DNA of 64,000 nucleotides, taken from contig CATKHK010000016.1 of assembly GCA_949751835.1 (NCBI GenBank), positions 248,001 to 312,000 on the forward strand, given 5' to 3'. The notes beneath the pieces were generated by a model, which was given only the letters and a program-made list of their open reading frames with translations, searched no databases and was not told the origin of the DNA. Position 1 is the first letter of the stretch. Each line of letters opens with the position of its first letter. This document shows positions 4,224-61,165 of the stretch, one piece after another. A program made the position numbers and the translations under genes. The stretch comes from Blepharisma japonicum. Taxonomy: Eukaryota > Ciliophora > Heterotrichea > Heterotrichida > Blepharismidae.

Positions 4224-5048
4224 ATGGAGGATAAAGTAGAACTCCCTCAGAAACGTGAACGTCTCCAACCAAAGAAGGCAGATTTCAGAATGAGAGCTCA
4301 CTGCAATCCTCTTAGCGATTCAAATTGGCCCTTGTAATTTTGAAGCAGCCCTATGTCTCCAAGCCACGTTGACTGAAGTTTATTTTTCGAGCAAAATGAT
4401 CATATCTACTGCAACAGTAAAACTTATTCAGCAATTGAGCATCCTCTCTATTTCTCTACAATTAAACTTCCTCCTCCTTCTCAGCCAGTAGAAATTGCTG
4501 ATATTGGCTGCGGATATGGAGGACTGCTTTTTGCATTAAGTAAAATAATGCCAAATACTCGCATGCTCGGCATGGAAATCCGTAACAAAGTCACAAACTA
4601 CGTTGCCCAGAAAATTTGAGCATCCAGAATAGAAACCAATGAAGTAAATTTTACATAGTTTTGAAACATTGGCGTCCTTCGTGCAAATGCAATGAAACAA
4701 ATCACAAATTATTTTCCTAAATCTTCTTTGACAAAATTATTCTTCTGTTTCCCAGACCCTCACTTCAAGAAATCAGTTCATCGGCGAAGAATTGTGCACA
4801 GGAATTTATTATCTGAATACGCCTATGTCCTTAAATCTGGAGGGAAAATATATGCTATCACCGATGTATTACAGCTGCACGAATGGCATTTAGACCAATT
4901 CAAGCAGCATCCTTTATATAAAGAAGTTCCTCAAGAAGAAATAGAAGCAGACCCATGCGTCACTGCTATGATAAATGAAACAGAAGAGGGAAAAAAGGTG
5001 GAAAGAAATAAAGGCAAAAAATATTATTGCGTTTATCAGAGGATTTAG
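4224..5048 (+). CDS. METTL1: tRNA (guanine-N7)-methyltransferase
   Basis: Homologue of METTL1/Trm8, which uses S-adenosylmethionine to methylate G46 of tRNAs with a WDR4-type partner. Two 15-nt introns (4334-4348, 4644-4658) are removed to give about 264 residues. In order: RAHCNPLSD (family RAHSNP), VDWSLFF, the SAM-binding motif ADIGCGYGGLLF, GMEIRNKV, LRANAMK, and the active-site segment FFCFPDPHFKK, then EYAYVLKSGGKIYAITDV and EEGKKVERNKGK. Trp in VDWS (TGA, 4374-4376) matches the family MDWS, and further Trp-TGA codons lie at 4617-4619 and 4662-4664. The stop is TAG. Without the introns and the alternative code only the 3' part would be seen as open. Confidence 0.96.
4334..4348 (+). other. 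15-nt intron, METTL1 intron 1
   Basis: gtaattttgaagcag. It interrupts a codon after its second base (phase 2). Removing it joins two halves of the conserved N-terminal region; leaving it in puts TAA in frame at once. Confidence 0.9.
4644..4658 (+). other. 15-nt intron, METTL1 intron 2
   Basis: gtaaattttacatag. Phase 0; its own last three bases form an in-frame TAG if retained. Splicing links the SAM-binding half to the LRANAMK and FPDPHFK half in the correct family order. Confidence 0.93.
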
Positions 5049-5087
5049 GTAATAAAAAGTCTCTTTTATCATTAATTATATATTTAG

Positions 5088-5756
5088 ATGGAGAGCGATT
5101 GGGATCGAGTGAAGAGTCAAATAGCTCATATGCTTGATAGCAGGATTGCTCCAATAGAGCAAGAACTTGAACAGCAACGTGCATTGGTAAGTCAGCTTAC
5201 TCAAGTAATCCAAACTCTGACAGGAGCTCTTGATATATCCCCGCCTCAATCACTTGTCAAACCTGCTGAGAGGGTAGCGCCAAGCCCACCACCTGCAGTT
5301 GTTGAAAATCACGAACATCAGCAGCCAGAACATAGTGAAGACCAAGCTCAAGAAGCTCCAAAGGAAGCAGAAAAAATTGCAGAAGATGCTGAACCTCCAA
5401 AAAGTGAAGAAGAACATAAAGAAGAGGAAAAGCATGAAGAACCGCATGAAGAAAAACATGAAGAGGTTCATGAAGAGGTTCATGAAGAGGCCCATGAAGA
5501 GGCTCATGAAGAGGCTCATGAAGAAGTCCATGCTGCTGAAACTGAAGAGCCAAAAATTGAAGAAAAACCTACAGAATCTATTGAGCCAGAGACTAAGCAT
5601 GAAGAAGTCAAAGCGGAGGAAAAACCAAAAGAGGCTCATAAAGAAGTTCATAAAGAGGAAAAGAAAAAGCTTCCAGCTCCAAAAGGGAAAGTTGAAGCCC
5701 ATGCGAAAAAAGTTGAGGAAGAGAAAAAAACTATTAAAAAGGTAGGCAAAAAATAA
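5088..5756 (+). CDS. Acidic His/Glu/Lys repeat protein
   Basis: A 222-residue protein I cannot assign. Residues 1-45 look like a short amphipathic coiled coil (IEQELEQQRALVSQL). The rest is low complexity: Pro-rich around 50-70, then Glu/Lys/His-rich with a run of HEE(V/A/K/P) tetrapeptide repeats at about 116-148, and a basic tail ending KKVGKK. No signal peptide or membrane segment. It begins only 39 bp after the METTL1 stop, so its promoter must be very short or overlap that gene. Ends with TAA. The antisense strand is also open here, but only because of the repeat. Confidence 0.8.
   Translation: MESDWDRVKSQIAHMLDSRIAPIEQELEQQRALVSQLTQVIQTLTGALDISPPQSLVKPAERVAPSPPPAVVENHEHQQPEHSEDQAQEAPKEAEKIAEDAEPPKSEEEHKEEEKHEEPHEEKHEEVHEEVHEEAHEEAHEEAHEEVHAAETEEPKIEEKPTESIEPETKHEEVKAEEKPKEAHKEVHKEEKKKLPAPKGKVEAHAKKVEEEKKTIKKVGKK
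5433..5532 (+). repeat. 12-bp coding tandem repeat
   Basis: About eight imperfect copies of a 12-bp unit of the form catgaagaggyt, coding for His-Glu-Glu-Val/Ala. Some neighbouring units are identical at the DNA level, which suggests recent slippage or unequal exchange inside the gene. Confidence 0.85.
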
Positions 5757-6024
5757 ATTAAGCTAACTAAAATAAAATATATTTACTTTTGCTTTTCACC
5801 TAAGTATCGTAACCAAGCAGATATATACAACAGTAAATATAATTATAAGCATTTAAAATAGATAACTTGCAGAATTAGAAATATATGTTGTCTATGAAAT
5901 TCATTTAAGGAACAAAACTTAATATGTATCTTTCAAAGATATTTGTTTTTTTTATGATTATCTGGCAATCTATAAAACTCAAAATATCAATTATAAATTA
6001 ATTGCATTCAGAATTTAAGAAAAA

Positions 6025-7275
6025 ATGTCAATAGAATATGCACCAGCTTGGTCAATGCCTGGAAGGCAATCTGTAAAACGCCTTAATGAAGTTCCAGGTC
6101 CAGGATCATATTCACCAAAAGATCAGCTTGATTCTCCAAATTACAAAATTGGGACCAGCTCAAGATCTAACTTAACCAAGCCCAATAACATTTCTCCTGG
6201 ACCTGGAACTTATAATCCTTTGCTTGACACAAGTATCAACAAATCCCAAAAATTTAGCAGAAGCGTTCGAAAATTTTTAGTTTCTAATAACATTGCTCCA
6301 GGACCTGGTGCCTATGATAATAAAAACATAATTGGAGAAGGTCCTCATTTTTCAATGCTTGGCCGTTTAATCAGATCAGCTTCTAACCAAAGTTTGCCAG
6401 GCCCTGGCCAGTATAATTTAAACACTTATGAAAAATTTATTCCTCGTGCTCCTGGATATTCTATGGGATCTTCAAAGAGAGGCGAAAAACTGTCAAAATC
6501 CAATGGAAGTATACCTGGGCCTGGGACTTATGACAATAAATCTTCTGCTATAGATGGCCCTCGTTGGAAATTTGGAAATGAAACAAGAAGTCATAATACA
6601 AAAAGTTTGAATCCAGGACCTGGAACTTACAATTTTGGAAGTTCTTTGGATAGTAAAGGATTTAGCATTTCAGGACGTGGAGGAGAAGGCAAAGAAAGGT
6701 CTGTCACGCCTGGACCTGGAGCTTATGATATAAAAGTAGGAGCAGAATCTCCACAATACAGTGTAGGGAAATCAAATAGAGGCGTATACAATAATACTCT
6801 TAAGAAATTTATACCAGGGCCAGGTGCTTATAATCCTGCACATACAGAGCCAAACTTTGCATCAGTTTTTGGGTCAAGTAAGCGCAAAGCTTTAAGCACA
6901 ACTCTAAATAATCCAGGACCTGGGGCCTATTCTTTATCTAATCAGCCTGATGGGCCTGTTTATACAATTAAAGGAAAATACAAAAGCAAAAATTCTGATT
7001 TTGTGCCAGGTCCAGGACAATATAACCCTCAAAAACGAGACAAATCACCTTCCTATTCAGTCAGTCGAGCTAACCGAGGCCATATCACCCATTCCAAGAA
7101 CGAAGTCCCAGGTCCAGGCACTTACAACTCAAACAACTCAGACCGAGCTCCAGGATGGGGATTTGGGAGTGACCGTTGGAAAAAGAGATCATTCCTTGCA
7201 TCTCCAGGGCCAGGCTACTATGACATCGGAACAACCATAGGACAATTACCTTCATATGCATTATCTAAAAGATAA
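6025..7275 (+). CDS. PGPG-repeat (SHIPPO/ODF3-like) ciliary protein
   Basis: A 416-residue protein made almost wholly of about 33-residue repeats, each ending in the motif PGPGxY; I count twelve (PGPGSY, PGPGTY, PGPGAY, PGPGQY, PGPGYY and so on). This is the sperm-tail PG-rich repeat of ODF3/SHIPPO/CIMAP proteins, which line or bind axonemal and cortical microtubules. Between motifs are short Ser/Arg/Lys-rich stretches with aromatic residues (YSMGSSKRGEK, YSVGKSNRG). No membrane segment. Single exon, TAA stop, tail to tail with the Tousled-like kinase gene only 19 bp away. Confidence 0.93.
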   Translation: MSIEYAPAWSMPGRQSVKRLNEVPGPGSYSPKDQLDSPNYKIGTSSRSNLTKPNNISPGPGTYNPLLDTSINKSQKFSRSVRKFLVSNNIAPGPGAYDNKNIIGEGPHFSMLGRLIRSASNQSLPGPGQYNLNTYEKFIPRAPGYSMGSSKRGEKLSKSNGSIPGPGTYDNKSSAIDGPRWKFGNETRSHNTKSLNPGPGTYNFGSSLDSKGFSISGRGGEGKERSVTPGPGAYDIKVGAESPQYSVGKSNRGVYNNTLKKFIPGPGAYNPAHTEPNFASVFGSSKRKALSTTLNNPGPGAYSLSNQPDGPVYTIKGKYKSKNSDFVPGPGQYNPQKRDKSPSYSVSRANRGHITHSKNEVPGPGTYNSNNSDRAPGWGFGSDRWKKRSFLASPGPGYYDIGTTIGQLPSYALSKR

Positions 7276-7294
7276 GTAATTTATAGCAAATTAT

Positions 7295-9259
7295 TTATTT
7301 TTTGCCACTAAGATAAGGAGAACTGCAAGCTTCAAGTACATCAAAACGTTCATCTTGGTTATATTCAAGACATTTTCTTATAAATTCTTTACATTCATTT
7401 GAAACAACTGGTTTGTTTGGAAACGCCACCCCAGACGAGTTTACTATGACTTGGTCTTTAAATACTGATTCTTGACTCATGCCTTGGCCAAAAGGTTTTA
7501 CTCCATATAATAGTTCGTAAAAAATAACTCCAGCGCTCCAGACATCTACCTTTGAAGAAATAAGAGGTGGAAGTTGGCCTCGCTGGTGGCACTCAGGGGC
7601 TTGGTACCATATAGTTCCTGCTCCTTGACTTGTTAGCTCCGTATTCGTCTTATTTGGGTCCATTACCTTAGAAAGGCCAAAATCAGTTATTTTTACTTCT
7701 CCATTGTTTAATAAAATATTGGAAGGCTTGAGATCATAATGAATAATCTTTTCTGGCTGGTCATTCAGGTATTTTAGGCCTGTAAAAAGCTGCTGCATTA
7801 TAATTTTCGCTTCTTTTTCTGTTAAGTTGTTATGCTTTTTCAGGTACATTGACAAGTCTTCTCCTGGACAATACTCGAGAATTGTGCAAAAGCAATTGTT
7901 GTCAATCTCTAGAGTGTCAAAATGTTTTACAATGCGAGTGTGGTTAAGCTCGCGGTGGATTTGGTTTTCTCTTAATGCGTGCTTTATATAGTTTGCCTTT
8001 ATAGCTTCGCTCCATACTGGATTAAGCTGATGGAACTTAATTGCTATATAAGTGTGCTCGAATAGGTCATACGCTTTATACACCTCAGAGTACCCTCCTT
8101 TTCCTAGTAACGACAGTAATAAATATCTTTTATGAAGCACAGGCCATGCTTCGTACTCACTCGTTGTTTTTGAATATTTCGCGTTTTCTTCTTCAGTTAC
8201 TCTTTTGCACTCTTGGACGTATATACATTTCTCAACCTCCAGCCTTTCAAGCTTGTCTTTTAGTTCGCTTTCTTCTCTTGTTAATAAAGCTAGTTTTAGT
8301 GGTAAAGTTGCAAGTAAGTCTTCATCAAGCTTTTTCGATTGCTTTTTTTGTTTTTCTACCGTTTCCTTTTGGCTGCTGACTGAAATCAGTCTTTCTTTGG
8401 TCTCTAAGATTTCTTTGCCGTCTTCCCAAGTTTCAATGAACTTAGCTCCTATTCTTGCCATAGTGACTTTTCCAAGTCTGAAAGAGTCAGTGAAGAGCTT
8501 TTCTTTGAGCTCTTTTCTCTTTTTTTCTTCTAATTGCTTCATTGTTTTTATTAAAGCTGCTTTCCCTTTGTCAGCTGATTGTACAATTTTTTTGGTATCT
8601 TCACTAAGTGTCTTGTATTCTTGGTCTTTTAGCTCTAATTGATGCTTATAATTAGAGATTAAGGCATCTTTGCATTGGATTGTCTTGTTTAGTTCTTGGA
8701 CAGTCCCTTCCAGCTGTTTCATGTCTTGTTGCATTTTGGCAATTTTTTGGCTCAATGAATTGACCAATGTGGGAACAATGAATTCAGAGCAGCTGTCGTT
8801 TTTGAAGAAATCGGAGACTTCGTTTGGATTCGAGACAATGTCCATGCCTAATGATCTTGAATTTTCTTGATCAACTGACAATTCATCACTTTGGCGCCTT
8901 TTTGATCCGCTGAAGCTCCCTTTTTTCTTTAGATTCCCAAACGAATAATCAGAGAAGTCGTTAGATCTTGAACGCTTTGCAGATTCAGTAGGAATGGCTT
9001 CAGAGCTCGCGTAACCTCTTGATGCCTAAATAGTAAGTAACAATTGATATTTTTTCCTTACATTTTTTTGAGATGAAGAGTCGAAAAAGTTTGTCATCGA
9101 TGACTGATCAGAAGTCTGAGATTTTTCAGACTGAGGACTCCCAGGTTTCAAAGGAGAAAGCGGGCCTGTGAGCCGAGCCTCTAAGTTGACAAGCCGATGG
9201 TTTACGAAAGATAAACAATCATCTAAGTGGCTGTCGCTATTTGATACGAGTGCTTGCAT
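7295..9259 (-). CDS. TLK: Tousled-like kinase
   Basis: A 642-residue Ser/Thr kinase of the Tousled-like family, nuclear kinases that act on the histone chaperone ASF1 in chromatin assembly. The first 66 codons lie in exon 1 (9062-9259), followed by a 36-nt intron and one long exon. The N-terminal third is Ser-rich with basic, possible nuclear-localisation patches (SAKRSRS, SGSKRRQ); the middle is a long coiled coil; the kinase domain occupies about 365-640. Visible motifs are GKGGYSEVYKA, IAIKFHQLN, the TLK-type HYDLKPSN, ITDFGLSKVMD and LTSQGAGTIWY. All catalytic residues are present. Stop TAA. The ATG at 9257-9259 is preferred because its exon joins the kinase frame through a good splice pair. 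Confidence 0.94.
9026..9061 (-). other. 36-nt intron of the Tousled-like kinase gene
   Basis: Starts gtaagg and ends ttactatttag on the minus strand. It is longer than every other intron seen here (15-16 nt) but keeps the GTAA start and an A six bases from the 3' end. Phase 0; it ends in an in-frame TAG if retained. Shorter splice choices do not restore the kinase frame. Confidence 0.75.
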
Positions 9260-10292
9260 GTTGTATTTATTATTATAGCTTCAGACCTCAGGAGACAGTT
9301 TTCTTGGCCACTATTTGCTCACTTGAAAATTTGAGTCTGAAAATTGCACAAAAAATGTAAAAATTTTTTATGGAATTATGAATGAATTAGAAATAAATAT
9401 TTACTATTAGAATTCAAACGATGAAGTAAGATTGTCAGTGAAGTTCTTGGAGCCATTTTTAGATTCTTGCTTTCATATTGGGTATCCATGATGTTCCATA
9501 AATAATTAAAAAATTTTGTCTAGCTGGCGGGAGTGAAGAATAAAGTCCAGACGAATAACAAATAATTTTCATATTGCTTCTCTTCACACAATTATTTATT
9601 ATTATAAAAAATTGTAAGTATAGGTTTTATATAAATAATTTTTAAAGTTAAAAATATGCTAGTGTTTTAAGTTAAGTATCTTTGGACTTTGCTTAATACA
9701 TGTCTACATTGCATTCAACCATTTTATTTGAAAGTAATTTCTTAAGATGAATTCATTTTTAGCCTTATTTATACACAAATATGTTGATACCATCAGAATA
9801 ATAAGCTTAATATAAAAGGTGTTATAAAATTCCAAATATAAAAATCTGATAGTCTCTAATGAATAGAATAAGAATAAACCTTTATTAAAGCTATTTATTC
9901 ATTGATAAAGATTAATAGCCAATATATAGAGAAATGCTTGCCCTTTTTATTGGAATTTCTTCTATTTGACTTTTTCTTCAAATCAAAAACATTTGATATC
10001 CTTAAATATTATACAATACAATTCATCAATCTCATTACTCATCTTTCATATGCATTATTGCTACAAAAGCCAAATCAAAAATAAGTATTATTCAGACATC
10101 AGTGAAAAATATTAATTGATCCTATATAAGTTTGGTCTTAATTAAGTTTACAGTTGAATCCCCAATTTTAAATTTAGTTGTATTTGGCTAATCATATTTA
10201 GAGAAAATATGATTAACAAATTTTTAAATTTAATTACAGAGTTAAACCTAATTTCTATTATTAATTTAATCTAATAAAATATCAGCTCACTC
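9260..10292. other. Intergenic region between TLK and the 7TM-pseudokinase gene
   Basis: About 1 kb, mostly very AT-rich, lying upstream of the kinase gene. The segment 9400-9560 is less AT-rich and holds a 30-codon minus-strand frame (9407-9499) with one TGA read as Trp; it could be an upstream ORF in the TLK leader or chance. A 60-codon frame at 9902-10084 has skewed, low-complexity composition and is probably chance. Confidence 0.5.
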
Positions 10293-12032
10293 TTAATTTG
10301 AAATTCTTTCTAAAGATCTAGCTAATAAAGATATTGGAGGTCTTTTTTCTGGATCTGTATTTCAGCACGACATTATTAAGTTACAGAGAACTTCAGGTAT
10401 ATTTGCAGGTATTTTCGGTCTGTATCCTTCAACAACTACCTGTTGGCAGAGTTGATCTTTAGAATATCCAGGGAATGGTTCTTGCTCACTCATGATTTCC
10501 CAAACCATCATTCCAAAACTATATACATCATCACTTGGCGCTACTTTCAAAGGTGTCAGTCTCTTTTCCTTTATGAATTCTGGCGAGCTCCATCCTGATT
10601 TATTTGTATATCCAGAGATAATTCCCGCATATTTTTTTACCTTAAGAAACCCAAGGTCAGAGATTAATGCCTCCCCATCATCTTTAAGTAAAATATTATC
10701 TGATGTAAGATGCCCATGAGCTTTGCCTTGGGAATGGACTTGTTCAAGACATTCAGCAATATCACAAGCAATTCTCAGTTTTTCTCTATATGAAAATTTG
10801 ACCTTTTCAACATGTAAAGCATTGTAGAGAGATCCGCGCTCAATAAATGGATATACAATGCCTATGGTTGGAAGCTCTATAATGACTCCAATTATAGGGA
10901 GTAAATGGTTGCATACCATGGTCTGTATTATATTGATTTCTTCTTGAAATTCTTCAATAACATAGCCACTTAGTCTTTTAAAGACGATTTTTCTAAGAAT
11001 TACAGTCATGCCTTTGTAGGTTGCTTTGTAGAGTTTTCCTAGACCATTTTTCTTTGAAAAATATTCATCAATGATCGTTAAATCAGACATTTTAATTGAG
11101 GTCTCAGCAACCATGCTGAGTGTAGAAAACTCATGCGATTTTTCATCAAGAACTGAATTCTTCTCATCAATGTCAAGGATACTTTGATCACCCTCTTCTT
11201 CAGAAAACAAAAATATTCCTATAAACCCATAATCTAGTACCAGCGCCATGCATATAACTTCGCTTATTATTAAGCTTAATATCATTAAAGCAGCTGCAGT
11301 TGTATCCATTGCATGATCCGCTCTATTTGTAATGTTTTCACTAATATTTGGTTCTGAATATTCTGCTAAAATGTCGTCAATTCCTTCAGCGAACCTAGCA
11401 AGTGACCAAAACAAGGCAACACAATTTATTCTATTAAGCTTGGACTTCCATACTTTAGATCTTGTAGGCAGTCCTGAGTATTTTATTTGAAAATAAACCA
11501 TCATTGCCATTACAAAGCTTGGTAGAATAAAATTAACAATCCCAATTTCCTTTGATATGTCTCTTTCATGCAGCATTGAACAACACAGTAAAAAGTATAA
11601 CATTATTTGTGTGCCTATCCAAATTGTAAGTATAAATGCGATAGCTTTGCTAGCCTTACTATATTTAGGTCTCTTAGAAATCTCATTAAAAAATGTCATC
11701 CGAAGCTGAGAGATGTGGGCATAATAAAAGACAGTCAGCATCTGCCATATAAGTAAAAGATAGCTTACGATAAAAAGTGAATCAGGAACTGAAAGTAGTA
11801 GGAAAAGAAAAACATCAGATAAACTTTTCAGGTTTGTTATGATTACTAAAAAGCAAATTGCACGTAAGAGTGATTGAAAAAGGACTGTCACATAAAATAT
11901 TTTGGTTTGCCGCCATTCTGTCGTGAAGTTGTGCAACCGTATAGCACGAAAAAGGCAAAGGCAAGATATTGCAGTATAGATAAGGAATAGGCAAAGAAAT
12001 ACAAGTAAAGCTGTGCTATCTGTTGAGTCCAT
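10293..12032 (-). CDS. Seven-TM protein fused to a C-terminal pseudokinase
   Basis: A 579-residue protein with two parts. Residues 1-280 hold about seven hydrophobic segments (for example LLVFLCLFLIYTAISCLCLF near 9-28 and IAFILTIWIGTQIMLYFLL near 130), a receptor-like layout. Residues 320-579 form a protein-kinase fold of the tyrosine-kinase-like type, ending with the subdomain XI pattern MSCWNTDPEKRPP, whose Trp is TGA (10362-10364). Catalysis looks lost: HRDL reads HGHL, the ATP-site Lys region reads VILRK, and DFG reads DLG. I infer a membrane receptor whose kinase domain acts as a scaffold or switch. The stop is TAA at 10293; stopping at TGA would cut off the last helix. Confidence 0.83.
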
Positions 12033-18279: not shown

Positions 18280-19284
18280 ATGGATTCTTATCAGCCATCT
18301 TCAAATGCATGCATAAAATGTGTTCACTCGCTTGCAGAGCAAGCTGATAATGATCATAATTTTATCGCAGTACCTCATGGGTAAAAGAAATTCAGACAAT
18401 TTCAAGCTCAAAAAGTATCAAAACTGAGCGATAGACGTGAATTAACGAAATGTAGAGTTATTCAAAGAAATTTGGTTTATTTGATAGGCCTTCCACCTAG
18501 TATAGCAGACGAAGAGGTAAAAAATAAATAGACTATGATTGAAGACAAGTATTTTGGACAGTATGGCCACATAAAGAAATGCGCTGTCAACAAAACAAGT
18601 CCATATATAAGCCCTTTAGGAATTTCCTATAGTGCTTTTATTACATACAACACTGAAATAGAAGCCACACTCTGCATAAAAGCATGTGATGGCTTCAAAA
18701 TTGAAGGCAGAAGGCTAAAAGCTACATTTGGGACCTCTAAATACTGCAATTCCTATATAAAAGGGCAGAAGTGCCTTAATGCAGATTGTTTATATCTTCA
18801 CGAATTAGGGAGTCAAATTGATACTTTTACAAAAGAAGATATTCAAAGAAATAAACATATACAGCCCCACAATTCAATTTTTCCACTTTTGAATGTTGTG
18901 GTATCAAAGACAGATAGTAACCATGTGCTTCCAGTAGCTTTATTATTACAGAGAAAAAGAGTATTCAGCGAGGATATTCATAGCATAAAAGCAGAGAAGC
19001 CAAGGCTTTATAGCTTTGACGCTTCAAGTAAAAGGCAGTTTAGCAGATTTGGATTTGATGAAGAAAGCATGGAAGAACCTGCAGAAGCTCCTAAGTTTTT
19101 AAAAGAAATTTTGGCAAAGAACTCTCCTGCGAAAGATATAGCACATATACATGTCGGCGATATCCCTGAGTTGATGAGTCATAGTTGGGCTAAGGATTTG
19201 ATTGATATTAAAATACCTGAGATTTATGCAAGCAGTCTGCAAGATGAAGACAGAGTGATTGCGTCTCCGCGATCTGCGTGATAA
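18280..19284 (+). CDS. CNOT4: NOT4 (CNOT4)-like RNA-binding protein lacking the RING
   Basis: A 324-residue protein after removal of two 15-nt introns. Residues 42-165 match the RRM plus C3H region of CNOT4/Not4: RVIQRNLVYLIGLPPSIADE, EDKYFGQYGHIKK, GRRLKATFGTSKYC, and CLNADCLYLHELG, followed by the family FTKEDIQ. The N-terminal RING that makes Not4 an E3 ligase in the CCR4-NOT complex is absent: only about 40 residues precede the RRM, with two Cys (ACIKCVHS). The C-terminus is unknown, and TGA (Trp) precedes the TAA stop. Either the RING has been lost or it is supplied by another gene. Confidence 0.85.
18381..18395 (+). other. 15-nt intron, NOT4-like gene intron 1
   Basis: gtaaaagaaattcag. 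Phase 2; retention gives an immediate TAA. Confidence 0.85.
18517..18531 (+). other. 15-nt intron, NOT4-like gene intron 2
   Basis: gtaaaaaataaatag. Phase 0, inside the RRM; its last codon is TAG. Removal joins two parts of the RRM that are contiguous in the family. Confidence 0.92.
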
Positions 19285-28397: not shown

Positions 28398-30411
28398 TTA
28401 TAGACGGGATAAAGCAATACTGGCTTTGGCTTTCTCTACAATTTTAAGGCCTTTTTCGAGCTTGTTGTTATGAAGTTTTAGAGCTTCATTGATTTCTTGC
28501 ATATTCTGAAAAATATTTTTTTGGCTGGAATTTTTGGTTTTTAGCTTCTGTTTTTGTTTTTCGCTATAAATGAGATCAGTGAGAGAATCTTCTGTGTTTA
28601 TTTCTTTTATGTCCATACTGTGCAAGTCTTTCCATGTGATTTTGGTGGTTTCTAAATTAATTAAGGGTGGAGCCTTTATCACTTTTGTGCTTTGAACTGG
28701 TTTTAATATTTTTTGAACTTCTGTTTTAGGTGAGCTAGCCTCAATTTCATTTGTTTTGATGAGAATTATTTTTTTATTTTCAGTTGGAATCTCTTCTAGT
28801 GACCTTCGTGAAGATGACGTTTCTTTTGCTTCTATTGAAATTATTGGTTTTAATATTTCTGATTTCGGAGTTTTACTAATGGCTTTTGATTTTGATCTTC
28901 TTTTGTCTTTCTTTTTATCAGTTATTTTTGGCCTTGGCTTAATAATTATTCCTTTTTTTTTTAGCTCATCAGTATTATTGACTCCTAGATATTCATAAAG
29001 TAATTTTCTTTTAACTGAAAGCGATTGGTTTGCAAAATTCGTTTGATAAGTTTCATCATATTTTTTATTATAAAAAATCGCAGCCAGCTTATCTAAAGCA
29101 TCCTAATATAACCCTTACAAAAAAATGGGATTCTTTCATAATCCTACTACTTACTGAAACTCTTTTGAAAACAATTTTTACTTCATCTTTTGAGATAAAG
29201 CGGCATTGCTGTGATGGGATGCCAATTAGATTGAAATCTATACAAAATTGTATGAATCTGGGTAGGGTCAAGACTGACTGGTTATCTTTGATTTCTTCAA
29301 AAGTTGAAGATTTTCCAAGCATTTTGACTTGAGAATAAAATTGGAAGATTCCTTTTAAATTCTCTTTTTGCTTGCCTAGAACCTCCTTTTCTGCAATTTT
29401 TTCTTTATTTGATTTATAATCTTTCAATTCTTTCTGTAAATTTGAAATTAAAATTTCAATTGGTTTGGTATCTTGGTCGTTAATTGCCATCAATCGGCAT
29501 ACTTCAGTATATTCTTTAATAGTTTTGTTTATTTTTAAGATATTATCATCTTGCACAGGCTCCACGCTTGTTTCTGCTCAAGTTTCAATAATATCTAAAA
29601 CTTCATCTAGGCTTATTTTAGGGAAAACCAAAGAAGGATCAATTCCTAATTTTGCGAGCTCTTCAATTGCTTCTGGCCTAAGCTCAAGAAGTTCATTTTC
29701 ATCGCATTTCTTAGGTGGATATTGCTTATCCATATATCTAAAAATCTTTTTTATTTCTTTTTCGCCGACATCGACTTTGATTATCTCAAAAATATTCTGC
29801 ACAATTTCTTTGCATACCCTTATGTCCATCAACCCTTGCAACTGATTGAAATTTGTATTAAAAATCTCCTCAATTTCCTTTTTATGCTCTTCTAATTTTT
29901 TACTTATTCATGTATTTTTGCTTTCCCTTTTTGGCAGTGCAGGTTCATTTTGATTAGTTTGAGGAGCATCTTCATTAATAAAGCTGTCTTCTTTGGTAGA
30001 CTCTTGGATTGAAAATTTCTCTGTAGGCTGATGACGTGTATCTTCTATAAGCTGAGCTATTCCTCCTTCATAACCTGTGATGTCGTAAGCTTTTTCTAAT
30101 ATATAATTTCCTAATCTCCTTTTGAAAGACTCAAAGCGAATATTATTGGGATCAATTATATCATCAGGGTCATTTTTATTTGTTTTCTTTTGAAAATACG
30201 TATGTGCTTGAGTAAAATCATAAGTAAATGCTATGGACAGTTCTTTTAATGCTTTCTTGACTTTTTCTAATGTGATTGGTTTTTCGATTTGGTCATAAAC
30301 TCGCTCAATTTCTGATCCTTGCTCGATTTCTTCATATACATATTTAAGAAAATCTATATCTGGTACTCTTAATAGAGCTTACAATGTTGATTCAAAGGTT
30401 TCCTCGATCAT
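28398..30411 (-). CDS. Large uncharacterised protein (two tiny introns)
   Basis: A 660-residue protein I do not recognise. It needs a 15-nt intron (30368-30382), a 16-nt intron (29103-29118) and TGA as Trp (for example 29578-29580). Residues 1-120 are acidic and helical, followed by Ser/Glu-rich linker. Residues about 170-440 look globular and helical (VQNIFEIIKVDVGEKEIKKI, LTLPRFIQFCIDFNLIG, HFFDALDKLAAIFYNKKY), somewhat like EF-hand-like helical repeats of ciliary proteins but without Ca2+ loops. The C-terminal third is basic and disordered, with a last coiled coil. The 16-nt intron shifts the frame, which is why the 3' part looks separate before splicing. Stop TAA. Confidence 0.78.
29103..29118 (-). 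other. 16-nt intron
   Basis: gtaagggttatattag. Removing 16 nt shifts the frame and opens roughly 700 bp downstream; without removal a TAA follows within a few codons. Position 10 is A, as in the 15-nt introns. Confidence 0.85.
30368..30382 (-). other. 15-nt intron
   Basis: gtaagctctattaag. Phase 2, ten codons after the presumed ATG. The 3' end is AAG rather than TAG or CAG, so this is the least typical of the short introns. Confidence 0.7.
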
Positions 30412-46448: not shown

Positions 46449-47096
46449 ATGGGAGCAAGAAGGGAATAGTAATTTCTAATCAGCGATTACCTTTTTAAAT
46501 TAGTAATTATTGGTGACTCTGGGGTTGGAAAATCATGCTTATTGATTCGCTTTGCAGATGACTCTTTCACAGAAAGCTACATCACAACAATTGGTGTTGA
46601 TTTCAGGTTCAGAACTTTAGCTTTAGAAGAGACCTCTGTTAAATTACAGATTGTAAGCGCTACTTAGTGGGATACAGCAGGGCAAGAGCGATTTCGCACA
46701 ATCACAACAGCTTATTATAGAGGTGCTGACGGAGTTATGATAGTTTTTGACAAAACAGACCGTAGTTCCTTTCAAAATACAGATGGGTGGATGAATGAAG
46801 TAAATAAGCACGCAAGTGAAAACGCCATCAAGATGCTGGTTGGCAACAAATCAGATATCATGGATGCTCAAGTTACTAAAGAAGAAGGCGAAGAAAAAGC
46901 CAAGAGGTATGGCATCCCTTACATTGAAACAAGTGCAAAGAACGCGCACCAGGTCGATTTAGCTTTTACAACGATAGCTAGAGAATTAATGAAGCAAAGA
47001 AAAATGTTTGGAGCCCCTATAGTTTCTAAGCCTGCTCCAAAGGTTAGCTTGACTACAGAAAAGAAAAATGCAATAAACCAGAACTGCTGCAAATAA
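46449..47096 (+). CDS. Rab-family small GTPase
   Basis: A 205-residue Rab after removal of two 15-nt introns. All G motifs are present: GDSGVGKSC (P-loop, near 17), [11 protein letters not shown] (switch I), [19 protein letters not shown] (switch II; the second intron lies directly before this W), GNKSD and ETSAK. The sequence is closest in style to Rab1/Rab8. The C-terminus NCCK fits the XCCX prenylation type, for membrane attachment. It would act in vesicle traffic. ATG at 46449, TAA stop, with the CEP44 gene starting 26 bp later. Confidence 0.95.
46469..46483 (+). other. 15-nt intron, Rab gene intron 1
   Basis: gtaatttctaatcag. Phase 2; the unspliced codon reads TAG followed by TAA. Removal puts the start codon in frame with the P-loop. 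Confidence 0.92.
46653..46667 (+). other. 15-nt intron, Rab gene intron 2
   Basis: gtaagcgctacttag. Phase 0, between KLQI and WDTAGQE; removal restores the invariant KLQIWDTAGQ of Rabs. This is the clearest intron in the window. Confidence 0.98.
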
Positions 47097-53441: not shown

Positions 53442-53741
53442 ATGTTAAATTATTTTTAAGTAAATTTTTGTCAGCATAATGCATGGTATTTTAATGTTAA
53501 TTAGTAAAAAGTCTATAGATTATAGTGGAATTTGAAATATTAGACTCCAATTCAGTTAATTTTAAATTAGATTCAACAATAAATATGCATATTTTATAAA
53601 GAAGCATATTTTTTAATTTTTCAATCAGCCTCCTCTTATGTAGCAATTAATCATAATTTTATATATATTGCAGAACCTTGATTATAATTAATAATTTTTA
53701 TATAAATGGAAAAAATTATTGTTATTTCCTCAATATTTATC

Positions 53742-56423
53742 TTAATTTAAGCTCCTCTCATTTAGCTCACTTGATAGACCTCCTTCACTTCTTTGACGTC
53801 TAAGCCACATTCTTCGCTTATAATATTTATAACCATAATACCCTCCAACTGCTCCTCCGACTAAAAATAGTGAGAGCAGAAACCAGACCCACCACAAACT
53901 ACTTCCTGAGTCACTTGATGAAGATCCGCTTGATTTCTTCACACAAGCATTTTTCTTTGGATCCCATTTATACTTATCATCGCAAGAGCATGTCCCGTCT
54001 CCATTATTTTTCATATTTGCACTAGTAATACACTCTTGGCAATCATTTTTTGCATTGCAATTAGCACAAGTAGGATCACAAGCTAAGCAATCCCCTGTGG
54101 TTTCATAAAACCCTTTTGCGCATAAACATTGTTTAACTGATGTATCGAATTGAGCTTGAGGATTCTTACAGGTGCATTGTCCATTTGTAAAATTCATATT
54201 TAAAGAATCTTGACAAGATATACATGAAGTTGAATCGCTGCAGGACAAGCATACAGGCTCACAATTCGTGCATATATTATCACTATTATAAAACATTCCA
54301 CTTATGCATTCACATTTTTCATTCCCTACATTATAACTGGCGTTACTATCGTCACATTTACATCCTCCAGTATTATCAATTTTTGCTCTGCCCGGATCAA
54401 AGCATTGTTCGCATTGAGTTTGAGAGCTACAAACTGCACATCCAGCAACGCATGGAGAACAGCCAGTTTGTATTGAATAATATCCTGGATCGCACTCGCA
54501 TTCATTTTTTTCGTCATTAAAATAAGCATCCCCATCTTTGCAGGTGCATGTTCCACTCTCCGGATTCAGTACCATTTGAGTAGGATCGAAACAAGTATTA
54601 CAAGAACCATCATCATTGCATTGAGCACATCCAGAGCCGCATATTGTGCAGATCCCAAGGTCTTGGTTTTCATAATATCCAGGATTGCAGGTGCATTGAT
54701 GTGTGCTTGTGTTAAAATATGCATTTGAATCATCGCAGATGCATTCTCCATTATCATTAGTGTTCATATTAGTGTCATAACATTCAAAACATTCAGTTGC
54801 GCTGGTACAGTTTTGGCAGCCATCTCCACAAGTCCCACAAGTAGTCCCATCGTTTCTGGAAAAATGCCCTTCAGGACATTTTGTACAAGTATATGTGACT
54901 GGGTCTGGGTAATCAGTTGAGTCTTTGCAAAAGCAAGTTCCATCATTTTTGTTTATCATATTGTCAATATCCCAGCATTCGGAGCAAGAAGTTGGACTTT
55001 TACAGGTGACGCATCCAATTGAACAAGGCTCACATTTCCCGTTATTATCATAGAATCCATCAGCACAGACACATATATTGATCACATTATCAAAATGTGC
55101 ATTTGGATCCAAACAGGAGCATTTTCCATTTGTAAGTGTTTGGTTTTGTTGATCAAAACAAGTGTTGCAGTTTTCAAAACTGGGGCAAACTTCGCAACCT
55201 AAACTGCACAATGAACAGCCCAGCCCATCTCCATTAGAATATTGCCCAGGAGGGCATTCTTGACACTCTTGATCATCAAATCTGTCAATCCATTGGGTAA
55301 GATTCTTACAATAGCAGCCTCCTGTGTCTTTGCTAAGTTCTTGGGTATTTGAGTTTACACATAGCAGGCAATCGGTATCATTTTTGCATGTATTGCAGCC
55401 TACTCCACACAGCTCACATATTCCGTTCTCAGTATTATTGTAATACGTTGGAAGGCATACACATTTTTGTATGCTTGCATCAATATAAGCATTTTCATCG
55501 ATGCACCCACAAATCCCTTCAACAAGAATCATCGTATCATCGCTTTGGTAGCATTCTGTGCATTCATTATATCCAGTGCAATTTTTGCAACCTTTATCGC
55601 ATGCTGCACATACATTATTCATATACTCGAAATATCCTTCTTTACACACGCATTCTTCAGTTTTTATGTCAATTTCGGCATTTGGGTCTTTGCATGTGCA
55701 ATTAACCCCAGAAGGCTCCATTGCTGGGTTATAGCATTCAGTGCATTCTTTTTCGGAGCAAGCCTTACATGCAAGTCCACAAGCTGTACAAACGCCTTCA
55801 GTGTTATTGTAAAACCCAGTGCTGCAAGGGCAATTAAGCTCTGAGGCATCAAAATATGAGTTTGGATCGGAGCAAGAACATCTGCCATCACCATTATTTT
55901 TCATTTCCTTTGGATTTGCACACTCATCACAAACTGCTAATTCACTACATTTTGCACAAGTAGTGAAACAAGGGCTGCAAAGCCCAGTTGTGCTATTGAA
56001 AAAATAGAATGGATTGCAACTGCAAGTGTCTCCATGAGTGCAAACACATGAAGAGCCAGTAAGTGTGGCATTTTTGTCAATGCAGCTGCATGTTCCATTG
56101 AGATTATTAACTTGAGCTCCTGGGTCATCACAAAGAGTACAATTAGTGGGAGAAGAACATAGGCTGCATCCTTCTCCGCATGTGCCATCTGTAACTAAAA
56201 TATCCTCAGAACCACCTTCAGCTGTTTCTTTAGGTAAAATCTTCATCTTGTCTGACGAATGTTTTCTGATATGGTTTTTAAAAGTCATATCATCATTTCT
56301 ATATGAAGAGAGACTTATTTCATTTTCTTCATTTGAGGCATATAGTGAGCTGTCTACATATGAATGCACATTAGAAATTACCATGAAAAGCAAAAGCAGC
56401 ACTCCAAAGATCTGCTTTACCAT
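53742..56423 (-). CDS. Large Cys-rich repeat surface protein
   Basis: An 893-residue type I membrane protein. A signal peptide (residues 1-21, QIFGVLLLLFMVISNVHS) is followed by about sixteen repeats of 45-50 residues, each with the pattern C-x2-C...C-x2-C...GxCxCxDxNAxxD...CxCxxGxY, for example CSIGCVTCKSPTSCSECWD. A membrane segment at about 850-873 (WWVWFLLSLFLVGGAVGG) and a short basic tail (YKYYKRRMWLRRQR) end it. The repeats resemble furin-like/growth-factor-receptor Cys-rich modules of protist surface proteins. Many N-glycosylation sites (NCT, NGT, NNT). Role unknown: adhesion, mating or coat. No internal TGA; stop TAA. Confidence 0.88.
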   Translation of the reverse strand: MVKQIFGVLLLLFMVISNVHSYVDSSLYASNEENEISLSSYRNDDMTFKNHIRKHSSDKMKILPKETAEGGSEDILVTDGTCGEGCSLCSSPTNCTLCDDPGAQVNNLNGTCSCIDKNATLTGSSCVCTHGDTCSCNPFYFFNSTTGLCSPCFTTCAKCSELAVCDECANPKEMKNNGDGRCSCSDPNSYFDASELNCPCSTGFYNNTEGVCTACGLACKACSEKECTECYNPAMEPSGVNCTCKDPNAEIDIKTEECVCKEGYFEYMNNVCAACDKGCKNCTGYNECTECYQSDDTMILVEGICGCIDENAYIDASIQKCVCLPTYYNNTENGICELCGVGCNTCKNDTDCLLCVNSNTQELSKDTGGCYCKNLTQWIDRFDDQECQECPPGQYSNGDGLGCSLCSLGCEVCPSFENCNTCFDQQNQTLTNGKCSCLDPNAHFDNVINICVCADGFYDNNGKCEPCSIGCVTCKSPTSCSECWDIDNMINKNDGTCFCKDSTDYPDPVTYTCTKCPEGHFSRNDGTTCGTCGDGCQNCTSATECFECYDTNMNTNDNGECICDDSNAYFNTSTHQCTCNPGYYENQDLGICTICGSGCAQCNDDGSCNTCFDPTQMVLNPESGTCTCKDGDAYFNDEKNECECDPGYYSIQTGCSPCVAGCAVCSSQTQCEQCFDPGRAKIDNTGGCKCDDSNASYNVGNEKCECISGMFYNSDNICTNCEPVCLSCSDSTSCISCQDSLNMNFTNGQCTCKNPQAQFDTSVKQCLCAKGFYETTGDCLACDPTCANCNAKNDCQECITSANMKNNGDGTCSCDDKYKWDPKKNACVKKSSGSSSSDSGSSLWWVWFLLSLFLVGGAVGGYYGYKYYKRRMWLRRQRSEGGLSSELNERSLN

Positions 56424-56647
56424 ATTTTACTACAGAGAAGTTTTCCTCATTTTGAAGTAGAAACAGAAATTCTAGATTTGTAAACACTGCTAAAACTAAA
56501 AATTATTCCAAAAAGGTCAATAATATTATTGGAATAGGAAAAACGTCATCAATATTTCTCAAAATTTTATTAGTATTAGAAGAAGGGCCAAATTTATTAA
56601 TTCATCTAAATTTTGGAGAAGTAATTACCCTAATTAAATTGGCTTTA

Positions 56648-59176
56648 CTAAATAGAGTTAATCAAGTTTAATGCCCAGAGTGAAATTTCTCTTAGCCTGG
56701 AATTACTGGACTGTTTGAATCTTTGGACATAATTCACAACTTCGGGTATTTTTACGAAATCTCTTGCCCTATCTTTATAAGCTCCAGCAATATCTCCAAT
56801 AATCCCAATCGCCGTTCTATGCATGCTCTACATAAATCTTACAGGATTTGGCTTAAATGAATCTTGGGTCACTATCAAAGAATACCTTACAATATTAGGT
56901 GTATAAGGAATCAGTACTTCAAGCTGACCTCCTGCTATGAGTCCTTGTATAAACCCTTCATAGAACTGTAAAAGTGCATCTCTCATGCTTGCAAGGTACT
57001 CGTACATGTCTGGGTCATTTTCTTCTTTTATGACTGTCAAGCTTGCATTTGCAGCAGCTTCAATTAAAGCTAAAACTTGAGGGACATAAGGGACAAATGC
57101 TTCTTTTGAGTTAGATGCTATATCAGCAAGGGATTCTATACTTCTCAGCTTTACTGAAGAAGAAGCTTGCTCATTTTGCAAATTTCCTACAAGTGGTAAT
57201 ACTAAATCATTGATAAGAGGCTTGGAGTTTTCACCTAAAGCTCTAGCAATGTCTCCAATAACCATTGTTCCGGACATGCATAAGCCTACAATATCTTGCT
57301 TTTGTAAAGCATAAGCAATATAAGGGGCAAGAATCTGCAAATACCCTGAAAACCTTGACTCTAAAAGCTGAGCGAAATTTCCTATAGCTTGGATTCCTTC
57401 TTCATAGACCGAGCTTCTTACTGTAAATGACTGTATAAGGGCTTCAAGGAAGCTTTTGCAAAGATCTTCAGTCATAGATTCTGGCCTTACTCTACTTAAA
57501 GCTGAGGAGATACTGGATGCAATCAAAGCTTGCATATTTTCAGTGGCTTCAGAATATGAACAGTGCTTTAGCATATTAATTAAATCTGGGAGCTTTCTTT
57601 CAATAATTGGAATACAGTCATTTGCTGACCTTTCTAATAGTGTAGATAATGTCGAAAATGATGCTACTTGCAGATTATTTTCAGAGGAAACAACCCCAGC
57701 TCGGCCTGCTGACTCAAGAAGTGCTTGGAAAAGAGGCTCAAATATATCAGCTTTAAACAGCTGTTTTTCTTCAGAATGTTCTATAAGATGAATAAGAGTC
57801 CAACAGCAGCTGCAAGCAATCTTAGGCAAATCTTTTAGCGAATTAACAGCTCCGTTAAGAATTTGCATAAAATAAGAAGTTGAAACCACTTTAAATTGGA
57901 GATCACAAACCCTTGACAGTGCCCAAGCTGCAGATTCTCTTACAGACACATTTTCATCTCCCATCAGTCTTAATACATGGGGGGTAGTTTCAATAATCAG
58001 TCCATTAAGCTTGATAGCTGAAGGTCCTTCCAAAATCATCCCAAGAGCCATGCAAGCACTAGCCTTACATTTCCAGTCTGAAGAGTTGGCATTTGCTTTA
58101 ATAAATTGTATAGGAGCATCGATAAATTTATCATTGGTTAGCTGGGCAACTAATGATAATAGCAATCCACATGACTTGTGCAGATCCCAGTCGTCTTCTT
58201 CGAAATCCCCTCTTATGATGTTTTCAAGGATGATTGGGATAAGAATTGGAGCTGCAGTCATGATGAATCCTCTTACTGGAAGTGCAGGATTTTGCTTTGC
58301 CTGCCTGCTGCATTCAATATCTCCGATTTCGTTTCATACTTCTATAGCAAGTATGGCAATTTCAATTTGGTCTTGTTTGATAGCTTGTAAAGTCATATTT
58401 CCGATTTCTGATAGATGAGCAGGGAGGAAGTCATAATAATGCTCTACCAATTCACAGAATATTTGGAAACAAGCTTTTCTGACCTCGAGATCTTGATATA
58501 CTGCTACTTGATATAACATGTTTAATATAAATTCTCGCTCCTCTTTAACTTGCATAATATTTGACGCCAATTGTAAAGAATTAGACAATGCAGTCAGCGC
58601 CACAAGCTTAATTTCGGTGGTCGTATCTTGGGCTGTTATATTTGCTGCGATAGCACTGAATATTTGGTTAGAAAGTTCAGGCTTGATTATTTCAGCAGTG
58701 ACGCCTTCACATATATATCCTAAGGTCATTAAGCTCGCAAGCTTATAGCTTACGTTCGGATTTATGGCGTTCGAGACCAATATTTGGATGCTTTCAGCCC
58801 ATTCTCCTTTGGAAAGGTCTTTTTTAGCGACCGCTGCTACAGCTTGTGAAGCACTCAACCTGATATCTTTGTCATCACTTGCAAGAGTACCCAGAACATT
58901 GTTGCGGACTGTCGTTTTCAATGATGGATCAACCTTATCCCAGAAATCTGCTAAGAAATCTTCGTTATTGAGATTTGATAGCACGTTCTTGATATTAAGT
59001 CCAGCAAGCTGCCTTGATGGTTTTGGATCAGTCTGGGATGCAAGAACTGCAGAAAGGCTCAAGATATATTGTGTGGGGTTTGTTTGCTTTAATTGCTGCA
59101 GAGCCTCGAAAGCTGCTTGTCGAATGTTTGTGTCGTCGGACTGAGCATTCACAAGGATCTCACCCAAGCTTGACAT
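56648..59176 (-). CDS. KPNB1: Importin beta
   Basis: An 837-residue nuclear import receptor made of HEAT repeats, which carries importin-alpha or direct cargo through nuclear pores and is released by Ran-GTP. Family stretches include RQLAGLNIKNVL, DDDW-type acidic loop FEEDDWDLHKSCGLLLSL, CMALGMILEGP and VSVRESAAWALSRVCDL. The Trp of EVWNEIGDIE is TGA (58334-58336). A 15-nt intron (56828-56842) lies near the 3' end; spliced, the frame continues SMHRTAIGIIGDIAGAYKDR to TAG at 56648, matching the family GLIGDLCTAFG region. Unspliced, the protein would lose its last 60 residues. Confidence 0.95.
56828..56842 (-). other. 15-nt intron, importin beta gene
   Basis: gtaagatttatgtag. Phase 0, ending in in-frame TAG. 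Removal adds the C-terminal HEAT repeat expected of the family. Confidence 0.93.
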
Positions 59177-59293
59177 TTTTACAATGCCGCGCTTAGTTCT
59201 GACAAATAAGGAAAAAATTCCTAAAAAAGTTATTAAAGCTTAAAATCTGTGTAGGAATTATTTTATAAGGTTGAAAACTTTTACTAATATATT

Positions 59294-61165
59294 ATGGCAA
59301 ACAAGCTGAAATTCTATAACTTTACAAGCGCAATAGATGTTGGGTTTTGGCAAGTTTTGGCGAAGAAAAAATTAGAAGAAATTAAGCTGCAAGACGATTT
59401 CATTGATATTTTTGGGTATTATTCTCCTTCTCAGCATAAAGATCTGCCTCCTTTATTCCATGTTGTGTCAGATTCATTGATTGCTATAGCTAGCAACATT
59501 CCTCATGGGAGTATTAAAGTCAATGGCTACTTAAAAATATTCAACACTCTTGAAGAATTCAAAAATGCTGACAGAGAAAAATTATTAGCTGAGGCAGGCA
59601 AAAATGTATTAACAGACGGTAACCAAAATGCCTTTATTTTAATAGTTTTTGCTGACTTGAAGTCTTATGTATTTTATTACTGGTAAAATCTATATAGAAT
59701 TGCGTTTCCAATGATAAACTTTGAGCCTGTTGAATATTCTATACATCCTTTAGCTGACCATTTTGATGTAGATAAGCTTAAAGAAGCTTTAGCTGCAAAA
59801 TTGCAAAAAGGTGAAAATCTTTCTGCATTTTTAGGATTAAAAAGAATTGATGAAGGCTATGAATTTGTAGATGGGCCCTCAGATATTATTTGCTTTATAG
59901 ATCCTGCACCGAAGCATGATTTTCCTGGCGCTCCTTTAAGAAATATTTTATCTTATATTTCCCAGTCCCATTCAAGAAGTATAGATGTTGTCTCTATTAA
60001 AGACCTGATTTCAAGCAACCCAAACAATTTTTCATTAGGAAATTCTCAGTTTTATCAAATAACTTTGCCCGAAATTAATGAAGTAAAGTTTCTTGGATGG
60101 GAATTAAACGCAAAAGGAAAGCTTGGCCCAAGAGTCGTTGATTTAAGACCACAGCTAGACCCATTGGTTTTAGCTCAGAGTGCAGTTGATTTGAACCTAA
60201 AGCTTATGAGATGGAGAATGCTCCCTGAACTGAACCTTGATACAATTTCTGAGAGATCATGTCTCTTATTGGGATCTGGAACTCTAGGTTGCCAAGTCTC
60301 TAGAAACCTTATGGCATGGGGCATTAAGAAAATTACATTTGTAGATTCAGGAAAAGTATCCCACTCTAATCCTGTCAGGCAAAGCTTATTTGATTTTGAA
60401 GACGCCAGACTTGCTAAACTTAAAGCAAAAGCTGCTGCAGATAACTTGAGAAGAATATACCCAGGGGTTGAAACAGAAGGTGTTCAGCTTGAAATTCCTA
60501 TGCCCGGCCACTCGATAACTGGAAAGGAAGCTTTTGTAAAAGAGCAATTTGAGAAACTTGAAGAACTTATAAGATCTCATGATATCATATTTTTGTTAGC
60601 AGACACAAGGGAGTCGAGATGGGTACCGACTTTAATTGCGACTGCTCTGGATAAAACATGCATTTCTGTAGGACTAGGATTTGATAGTTTTGTGGTCGTT
60701 AGACATGGAGGGACTCCATTTGTACAAAATTCAGAAAGACTTGGCTGTTATTTTTGCAATGATGTAGTGGGCCCAAGAAACAGTACGAATGATAGAACTC
60801 TTGATCAAATGTGCACAGTCACAAGGCCAGGGCTTTCATTTCTTGCCAGCTCATTTGCAGTAGAACTGCTTATATCTCTTTTGCATCATCCTGATGTGCA
60901 TAAGGCGCCCCATAATTCTGAAACTCCGCTTGGAATATTGCCACACCAGCTCAGAGGGAATTTTGGTGGTTTTTCAATAATGAACTACTATGGAACTGCT
61001 TTTTCTAAATGCACAGGATGTGGAGTCACTGTGGTTTCCGAGTACTTAGAAAAAGGATTCGATTTTGTTGCAAATGCCTGCAATGACCCAGAATTCCTCG
61101 AAGAAATATGCGGCCTTAAGAGCTTAGACAGCCTAAATGAAGGAGACTTGATAGAAATAGATTAA
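59294..61165 (+). CDS. ATG7: ATG7, E1-like enzyme of autophagy
   Basis: A 618-residue enzyme that activates ATG8 and ATG12. The N-terminal domain has KLKFYNFTSAIDVGFWQVLA, LKSYVFYYW and LGPRVVDLRP; the E1 fold has CLLLGSGTLGCQVSRNLMAW (ATP site), FVDSGKVSHSNPVRQSL, DIIFLLADTRESRW and the catalytic Cys in DQMCTVTRPG (about residue 502). Zinc Cys pairs are CYFC and CTGC. A 15-nt intron (59682-59696) splits the codon for the Trp of FYYW; spliced it is TG+A = TGA (Trp). The C-terminus is shorter than in animals. The divergent importin beta gene starts 117 bp away. Stop TAA. Confidence 0.96.
59682..59696 (+). other. 15-nt intron, ATG7 gene
   Basis: gtaaaatctatatag. Phase 2. Unspliced, the message reads TGG TAA and stops after 130 residues; spliced, TG joins A to form TGA read as Trp, and the frame runs on into the rest of ATG7. 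Confidence 0.95.

What the first reader, a model, noticed from the sequence alone, without database searches (positions are those of the whole stretch)
4334..59696. Eleven introns of 15-16 nt, all GTAA...AG with A at position 10
Seen: ten 15-nt introns and one 16-nt intron, in METTL1 (2), NOT4-like (2), Rab (2), the 28398 gene (2), the zinc-knuckle gene, importin beta and ATG7. Every one starts GTAA and has A at position 10; in the 15-nt ones this is six bases from the 3' end, a natural branch-point candidate. Established: heterotrich ciliates have the shortest spliceosomal introns known. A lariat in 15 nt leaves almost no room between 5' site, branch point and 3' site, so the spliceosome must handle them in an unusual way.
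Basis: partly seen in the sequence, partly recalled or inferred. Interest (0 to 1): 0.82.

Follow-up and report, generated by a model that had tools for sequence, protein, structure and literature searches.

The report
Heterotrich ciliate's tiny fifteen-base introns
A single-celled ciliate seems to cut 15- and 16-base introns, among the shortest known, out of its genes, with a fixed adenine ten bases in; they look real but belong to a kind already described for its relatives.

Summary
All eleven segments are at the stated places: ten of 15 nt, one of 16 nt, all GTAA...AG with A at 10. Removing them restores conserved proteins. An intron caller that assumes only GT...AG finds a sharp 15-nt peak in 314 kb of this genome: 42 calls, against 0-8 for 15 decoy dinucleotide pairs. 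Of 40 unique ones 39 have A10; the exception has a better alternative boundary. Two generalisations fail. GTAA starts only 30 of 40 (GTA 38 of 40). A10 is not a rule for 16-nt introns: genome-wide pattern counts give 117 A10 and 122 A11 forms against 49 for one 17-nt control. TGA reads as Trp, so the genome looks like Blepharisma. The class is in print for B. stoltei (PMC9942806) and Stentor (PMC9505925, with A10 and A11). Added here: no excess U2 pairing around A10, and Cwc25 and Isy1 with altered N-termini, as reported for Stentor. No RNA data were available, so splicing and the branch A are inferred.

The parts
4334..4348 (+). 15-nt intron, METTL1 gene, phase 2
   Evidence: no gap at the junction in the best PDB alignment
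4644..4658 (+). 15-nt intron, METTL1 gene, phase 0
   Evidence: 3-residue gap two residues before the junction
18381..18395 (+). 15-nt intron, NOT4-like RRM gene, phase 2
18517..18531 (+). 15-nt intron, NOT4-like RRM gene, phase 0, inside the RRM_1 match
46469..46483 (+). 15-nt intron, Rab1-like gene, phase 2
   Evidence: no gap in the best PDB alignment
46653..46667 (+). 15-nt intron, Rab1-like gene, phase 0, in front of WDTAGQE
29103..29118 (-). 16-nt intron, 28398 gene, after codon 426, needed for the frame; A at 10 and 12, T at 11
30368..30382 (-). 15-nt intron, 28398 gene, near the start codon
31819..31833 (-). 15-nt intron, zinc-knuckle gene, between the first two cysteines of the CCHC motif
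56828..56842 (-). 15-nt intron, importin beta gene; alternative in-frame boundary 56817-56831 fits yeast importin beta less well
59683..59697 (+). 15-nt intron, ATG7 gene, inside the ATG7_N match
4417..4431 (+). candidate 15-nt intron without in-frame stop in METTL1 (GTAA, A10, phase 1); unproven
   Evidence: (phase-1 matches 4 observed, 1.4 expected in 80,567 codons)
9026..9061 (-). candidate 36-nt intron in a kinase gene (Tousled-like by eye), outside the 15/16-nt class; unproven

Best explanation
These are ordinary U2-type spliceosomal introns of the 15/16-nt class of heterotrich ciliates, in a Blepharisma-like genome. Proposed working: U1 and then U6 read GUA(A) at positions 1-4; U2 and its proteins place the bulged A10 as branch point with little base pairing; the 2'-OH of A10 attacks G1 to give a 10-nt loop with a 5-nt tail; (U/C/A)AG at 13-15 is the 3' site. 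Position 10 is fixed by distance, because most positions from 5 to 12 other than 9 and 10 carry little information and show no excess pairing to the U2 GUAGUA motif. 16-nt introns put the extra base either in the tail (A10) or in the loop (A11). Room in the active site may come from altered N-termini of Cwc25 and Isy1. Shown: sequence, reading frames, length peak, A10, the snRNA and protein genes. Inferred: splicing itself, the branch A, the 16-nt classes as introns genome-wide, and the role of Cwc25 and Isy1.
For: All 11 segments verified. Restored conserved proteins. GT-AG-only caller: 42 calls of 15 nt against 0-8 in 15 decoy pairs. A10 in 39 of 40 unique, and in 39 of the 40 calls (of 42) whose in-frame stop does not touch position 10, so the stop criterion does not create A10. 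Information mainly at 1-4, 9-10 and 13-15. U1, U2 (3 genes) and U6 found, with ACUUACCU, GUAGUA and ACAGAGA read. SF1-HH and Saf4_Yju2 matches present. U2 pairing 2.83 of 6 against 3.06 in shuffles. Cwc25 begins MGLKFLNKKSW; Isy1 residue 10 aligns with residue 5 of worm and 9l5s chains. Published parallels: PMC9505925, PMC9942806.
Against: No RNA reads and no lariat data. The caller sees only introns with an in-frame stop or a frame shift (all 42 15-nt calls had stops). 16-nt calls are near decoy level in number (7, decoys 1-6, mean 3.4). Real GTAA donors do not pair better with U1 than 519 control GTAA sites, so what separates a real intron from a look-alike is unexplained. Whether the Cwc25 and Isy1 changes are special to heterotrichs was not tested: no other ciliate orthologue was at hand.
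Confidence: 0.9

Rival explanations
1. Some segments are not introns but five-codon insertions with stop read-through, or assembly or pseudogene artefacts.
For: 15 nt is a multiple of three, so the 15-nt segments do not shift the frame; no RNA evidence.
Against: The large 15-nt peak appears for GT-AG only (42) and for none of 15 other dinucleotide pairs (0-8); A10 in 39 of 40; the retained form would break CCHC spacing and the Rab and METTL1 alignments; the 16-nt case needs a frame shift.
Confidence: 0.03
2. The introns are real but the branch point is not A10 in all of them, for example A11 or A12 in some, and A10 is kept for another contact.
For: U2 pairing with A10 bulged is no better than shuffled; several introns have further interior As.
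Against: A10 is the only position from 5 to 13 that is A in all ten 15-nt introns of the window; the same position in 8005 of 8173 Stentor 15-nt introns (PMC9505925, Results read).
Confidence: 0.07
3. Minor (U12-type) or self-splicing introns.
For: Unusual size only.
Against: GT-AG ends with U1, U2 and U6 present; no U12 match (but its controls rang nowhere, so absence is not shown); 15 nt is far too short for a group I or II intron (general knowledge).
Confidence: 0.01

Closest known systems
15/16-nt introns of Stentor coeruleus (Nuadthaisong et al. 2022, PMC9505925; Results and part 1 of 2 of figures and tables read)
   Same: Length 15 with a 16-nt minority, GT-AG, AT-rich (75.63% there; 73% in the window's 11 and 75% in 39 unique 15-nt introns here), A at 10 in 15-nt introns, no exonic G needed, conserved snRNA motifs, Cwc25 without the GGG plug and a divergent Isy1 N-terminus.
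   Different: There A sits at 11 in 442 of 633 16-nt introns; here A10 and A11 16-nt patterns appear in similar excess, and of 6 sampled all have A10 and 3 also A11. Counted by A11 alone, 3 of 6 is not distinguishable from 442 of 633. Stentor uses the standard code (recalled); this genome reads TGA as Trp.
15/16-bp introns of Blepharisma stoltei (Singh et al. 2023, PMC9942806; passages read)
   Same: 'Tiny, predominantly 15 and 16 bp introns', UGA = Trp, compact AT-rich genome.
   Different: Published assembly 41 Mb in 64 telomere-to-telomere sequences; this one 45.19 Mb in 224 contigs, so strain or species is not established. Its intron figure is in a supplement that I could not read.
Introns of the karyorelict Loxodes magnus (PMC11441545; passages read)
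   Same: Very short introns in the sister group of heterotrichs.
   Different: Mode 17 bp, mean 19.3 bp, under 16 bp negligible.

Membership tests
Heterotrich 15/16-nt spliceosomal introns | Length 15, minority 16 | tested here: met
   ten and one in the window; 42 of 15 nt and 7 of 16 nt among 63 calls in 314 kb; the other 14 have other lengths, fewer than in the decoys (28-56 calls in all)
Heterotrich 15/16-nt spliceosomal introns | GT...AG ends | tested here: met
   42 calls of 15 nt for GT-AG; 15 decoy pairs 0-8. The highest decoy, TA-AG (8, six with A10), may overlap real GTA...AG ends; not looked into
Heterotrich 15/16-nt spliceosomal introns | A at position 10 in 15-nt introns | tested here: met
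Heterotrich 15/16-nt spliceosomal introns | Spliced in RNA | not testable with these tools
   no transcript reads
Stentor-type 16-nt introns | A at position 11 in most 16-nt introns | tested here: inconclusive
   A11 in 3 of 6 sampled, A10 in 6 of 6; genome-wide 117 A10-type and 122 A11-type patterns against 49 for one 17-nt control. A mix, not an A11 rule, but without gene context
Major (U2-type) spliceosome substrate | U1, U2 and U6 present with their recognition motifs | tested here: met
   U4 and U5 not searched
Genus Blepharisma | UGA = Trp | tested here: met
   TGA at Trp positions conserved in PDB chains: Cwc25 11 and 23, METTL1 46; METTL1 127 and 137 are TGA where the yeast chain has no Trp
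Genus Blepharisma | Telomere repeat CCCTAACA | tested here: inconclusive
   not in the first 500 bases of contig C1, which need not be a telomere; no other contig end looked at
U12-type introns | U12 snRNA | tested here: inconclusive
   no match, but no control rang

The most novel reading that the evidence does not exclude
The heterotrich spliceosome picks the branch point by a distance ruler rather than by U2 pairing. In 15-nt introns the ruler is exact (A10). In 16-nt introns the one spare base goes to either side of the branch, about equally in this genome and mainly into the loop in Stentor. The ruler works because Cwc25 and Isy1, which project into the active site, have been reshaped in both genera.
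Probability: 0.3. Interest if true: 0.6.

Novelty: already known. Interest (0 to 1): 0.3.

Why it matters
A 10-nt lariat loop leaves very little room in the active site (an inference, also made in PMC9505925), so these introns bear on how much of branch-point choice is geometry and how much is pairing. That this genome shows the same A10 and the same kind of Cwc25 and Isy1 changes as Stentor makes a single-species remark testable across heterotrichs. The introns themselves are not a discovery.

Tried and rejected
A10 as a general rule for 16-nt introns: my six sampled ones fit it (chance 0.004 for a named position, 0.04 for any of ten) and a register test favoured it by about 6-8 log10 units, but the genome-wide counts did not bear it out. 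Stronger U2 pairing around A10: not seen. Donors better paired to U1 or to the variant U1: no clear excess over 519 control sites (p = 0.24 and 0.08). The pattern count against its reversed control is uninformative (10,415 against 12,882), as the reversed pattern is the richer one although introns are counted in the forward one. The first caller run at penalty 12 found only 4 introns in the window, and at flat penalties it merged some 15-nt introns into longer ones; the penalty favours 14-18 nt, for the decoys as well.

Rows dropped: of seven 16-nt calls in 314 kb one (start GTTT) was dropped and two identical paralogue copies counted once; of two 16-nt calls in the 11 search loci one inside a U2 gene was dropped. 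Two 15-nt duplicates were counted once (42 to 40). One search was given four of its ten proteins as parts (WD40 protein, importin, 28398 gene, zinc-knuckle protein).

Errors of mine: start coordinates off by one base for two genes and for the kinase; corrected.

Full report
What was checked. The window is G000:C16:248001-312000 of a 45.19-Mb genome in 224 contigs. All 11 reported segments are present: ten of 15 nt and one of 16 nt, all GTAA...AG with A at 10. Spliced gene models are METTL1, a NOT4-like RRM protein, Rab1-like, the 28398 gene, a zinc-knuckle protein, importin beta and ATG7. Pfam matches: Methyltransf_4, RRM_1, Ras, ATG7_N plus ThiF, TPR_IMB1, and zf-CCHC just under its cut-off (18.5 against 20.8 bits); the 28398 gene has only sub-threshold matches, so its exons rest on their open frames (importin, the zinc-knuckle protein and the 28398 gene were given in part). 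The best PDB alignment runs through both Rab junctions without a gap, through the first METTL1 junction without a gap, and has a 3-residue gap two residues before the second. The zinc-knuckle intron lies between the first two cysteines of the CCHC motif, so the retained form would break its spacing.

Importin. My caller placed this intron at 56817-56831, in frame and without A10. Against the vertebrate chains the two hardly differ (for example 20.7 and 20.7 for 2p8q; 20.2 and 20.3 for 1ukl).

Is it more than chance? I wrote a gene model that allows any GT...AG gap of 10-60 nt with no other intron signal, and ran it on C1:1-200000 and C16:218001-332000, 314 kb in all, with a milder penalty for 14-18 nt. 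GT-AG gave 63 calls, 42 of 15 nt and 7 of 16 nt. Fifteen decoy dinucleotide pairs, under the same penalty, gave 0-8 calls of 15 nt (mean 1.9) and 1-6 of 16 nt (mean 3.4). With a flat penalty on 264 kb the 15-nt calls were 17 against 0-3 in 11 decoy pairs. The 15-nt class is far above background; single 16-nt calls need support from their genes. Of 40 unique 15-nt introns 39 have A10; the exception is importin. GTAA starts 30 of 40, GTAT 5, GTAC 2, GTGA 2, GTAG 1; position 9 is T in 30, position 13 T in 31; the exon base before the intron is not G in 28 of 40. All 42 calls contain an in-frame stop, as the method demands; in 40 that stop does not touch position 10, and 39 of these have A10, so the stop does not create the A. 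In the window's ten 15-nt introns 25% of the other interior bases are A, so ten A10 by chance has P about 1e-6.

The 16-nt introns. Six unique plausible ones (five in the 314 kb, one in search locus L032) have A10 in 6 and A11 in 3. This looked like a rule of fixed distance from the 5' site. I then counted genome-wide: GTAANNTTTANNNTAG (A10) 117, GTAANNNTTTANNTAG (A11) 122, and the 17-nt control GTAANNTTTANNNNTAG 49. The reversed patterns gave 192, 217 and 150, so background differs between patterns; scaled by these the two 16-nt forms still stand in similar excess. The window's single 16-nt intron with A10 therefore does not stand for its class. These are pattern counts without gene context and with one control, so their tie to introns is indirect.

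Hidden introns. Strong intron-like 15-mers inside predicted coding sequence number 7: one, four and two in phases 0, 1 and 2, against codon-shuffled means of 0.6, 1.4 and 0.2 in 80,567 codons. One of the phase-1 cases lies in METTL1 at 4417-4431. Homologues do not decide it, because it falls in a stretch that the yeast chain lacks.

The machinery. U2 (three genes), U1 (one above the Rfam cut-off, one below) and U6 (one) are in the genome (counts are lower bounds). Read, the main U1 carries ACUUACCU, U2 GUAGUA and U6 ACAGAGA. SF1-HH and Saf4_Yju2 domains are present. No U12 was found, but no control rang, so this shows nothing. With A10 bulged, introns pair to the U2 motif at 2.83 of 6 positions against 3.06 when interior bases are shuffled. 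Donor pairing to U1 is not clearly better than at 519 GTAA sites in intronless genes (p = 0.24; variant U1 p = 0.08). What tells a real intron from a look-alike remains open.

Cwc25 and Isy1. Cwc25 here begins MGLKFLNKKSWH; its residue 8 aligns with residue 9 of the human chain, and its first conserved Trp is residue 11. The human GGG at 2-4 and Trp12, 24 and 72 are taken from PMC9505925. Isy1 residue 10 aligns with residue 5 of the worm chain (8ro0) and of 9l5s, and 14 with 9 in yeast chains; the human alignment starts only at 31 on 25 (worm and yeast as species names are recalled). So the N-terminus is about 5 residues longer; no other Met lies between it and the stop upstream. PMC9505925 reported loss of the plug motif in Cwc25 and a non-conserved Isy1 N-terminus in Stentor and proposed relief of a steric clash. 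This genome shows the same kind of change in both proteins. I could not test ciliates with longer introns, so a link to intron size is unproven.

What is in print. PMC9942806 (passages read) states that B. stoltei has 'tiny, predominantly 15 and 16 bp introns' and UGA = Trp. PMC9505925 (Results and part of the tables read) gives 8173 15-nt and 633 16-nt Stentor introns, with A10 in 8005 and A11 in 442. PMC11441545 (passages read) says that about 95% of heterotrich introns are 15 bp. Slabodnick et al. 2017 is not held and was not read. A search for Cwc25 with ciliate and introns held two papers, PMC9505925 and one on Paramecium bursaria (listing only). A search with Blepharisma and spliceosome terms (10 of 66 listed) showed by title no study of its splicing machinery; that is not proof that there is none.

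Verdict. Of the two regularities drawn from eleven cases, GTAA is too strict, and A10 holds for the 15-nt class only.

Noticed in passing
L005:1501-1661 (G000:C17:419159-419319): A second U1 snRNA gene (61.8 bits, cut-off 69.5) whose 5' end reads CAAUUACAAU instead of CACUUACCU and could pair with AUU|GUAAUU. It keeps the upstream elements at the same spacing as the main U1, but has more non-standard pair marks (20 against 12), some in its first stem, so it may be a working variant or a decaying copy.
   Followed up: partly
L001-L006, 26-61 bases upstream of the RNA: All six snRNA genes found (two U1, three U2, one U6) share TCCC(A/T)TAA(C/T/A)A starting at -55 to -61 and a TATA-like box at -26 to -30; TCCCWTAAYAAA occurs 0 times in 314 kb, both strands. 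One paper search with ciliate and proximal sequence element found only a beetle study.
   Followed up: partly
9026-9061, minus strand: A kinase gene, Tousled-like by eye, seems to need removal of 36 nt (GTAAGG...TTTAG, frame kept, one stop inside): a candidate intron outside the 15/16-nt class.
   Followed up: partly
   Followed up: partly
29-600 and 601-1170: The 5' part of an ABC transporter gene is duplicated in tandem, 548 of 569 aligned bases identical; the first copy breaks off.
   Followed up: no
G000:C16:221879-222014 and 224792-224927: A truncated tandem copy of a WD40-repeat gene carries the same 15-nt and 16-nt introns as the fuller copy.
   Followed up: no
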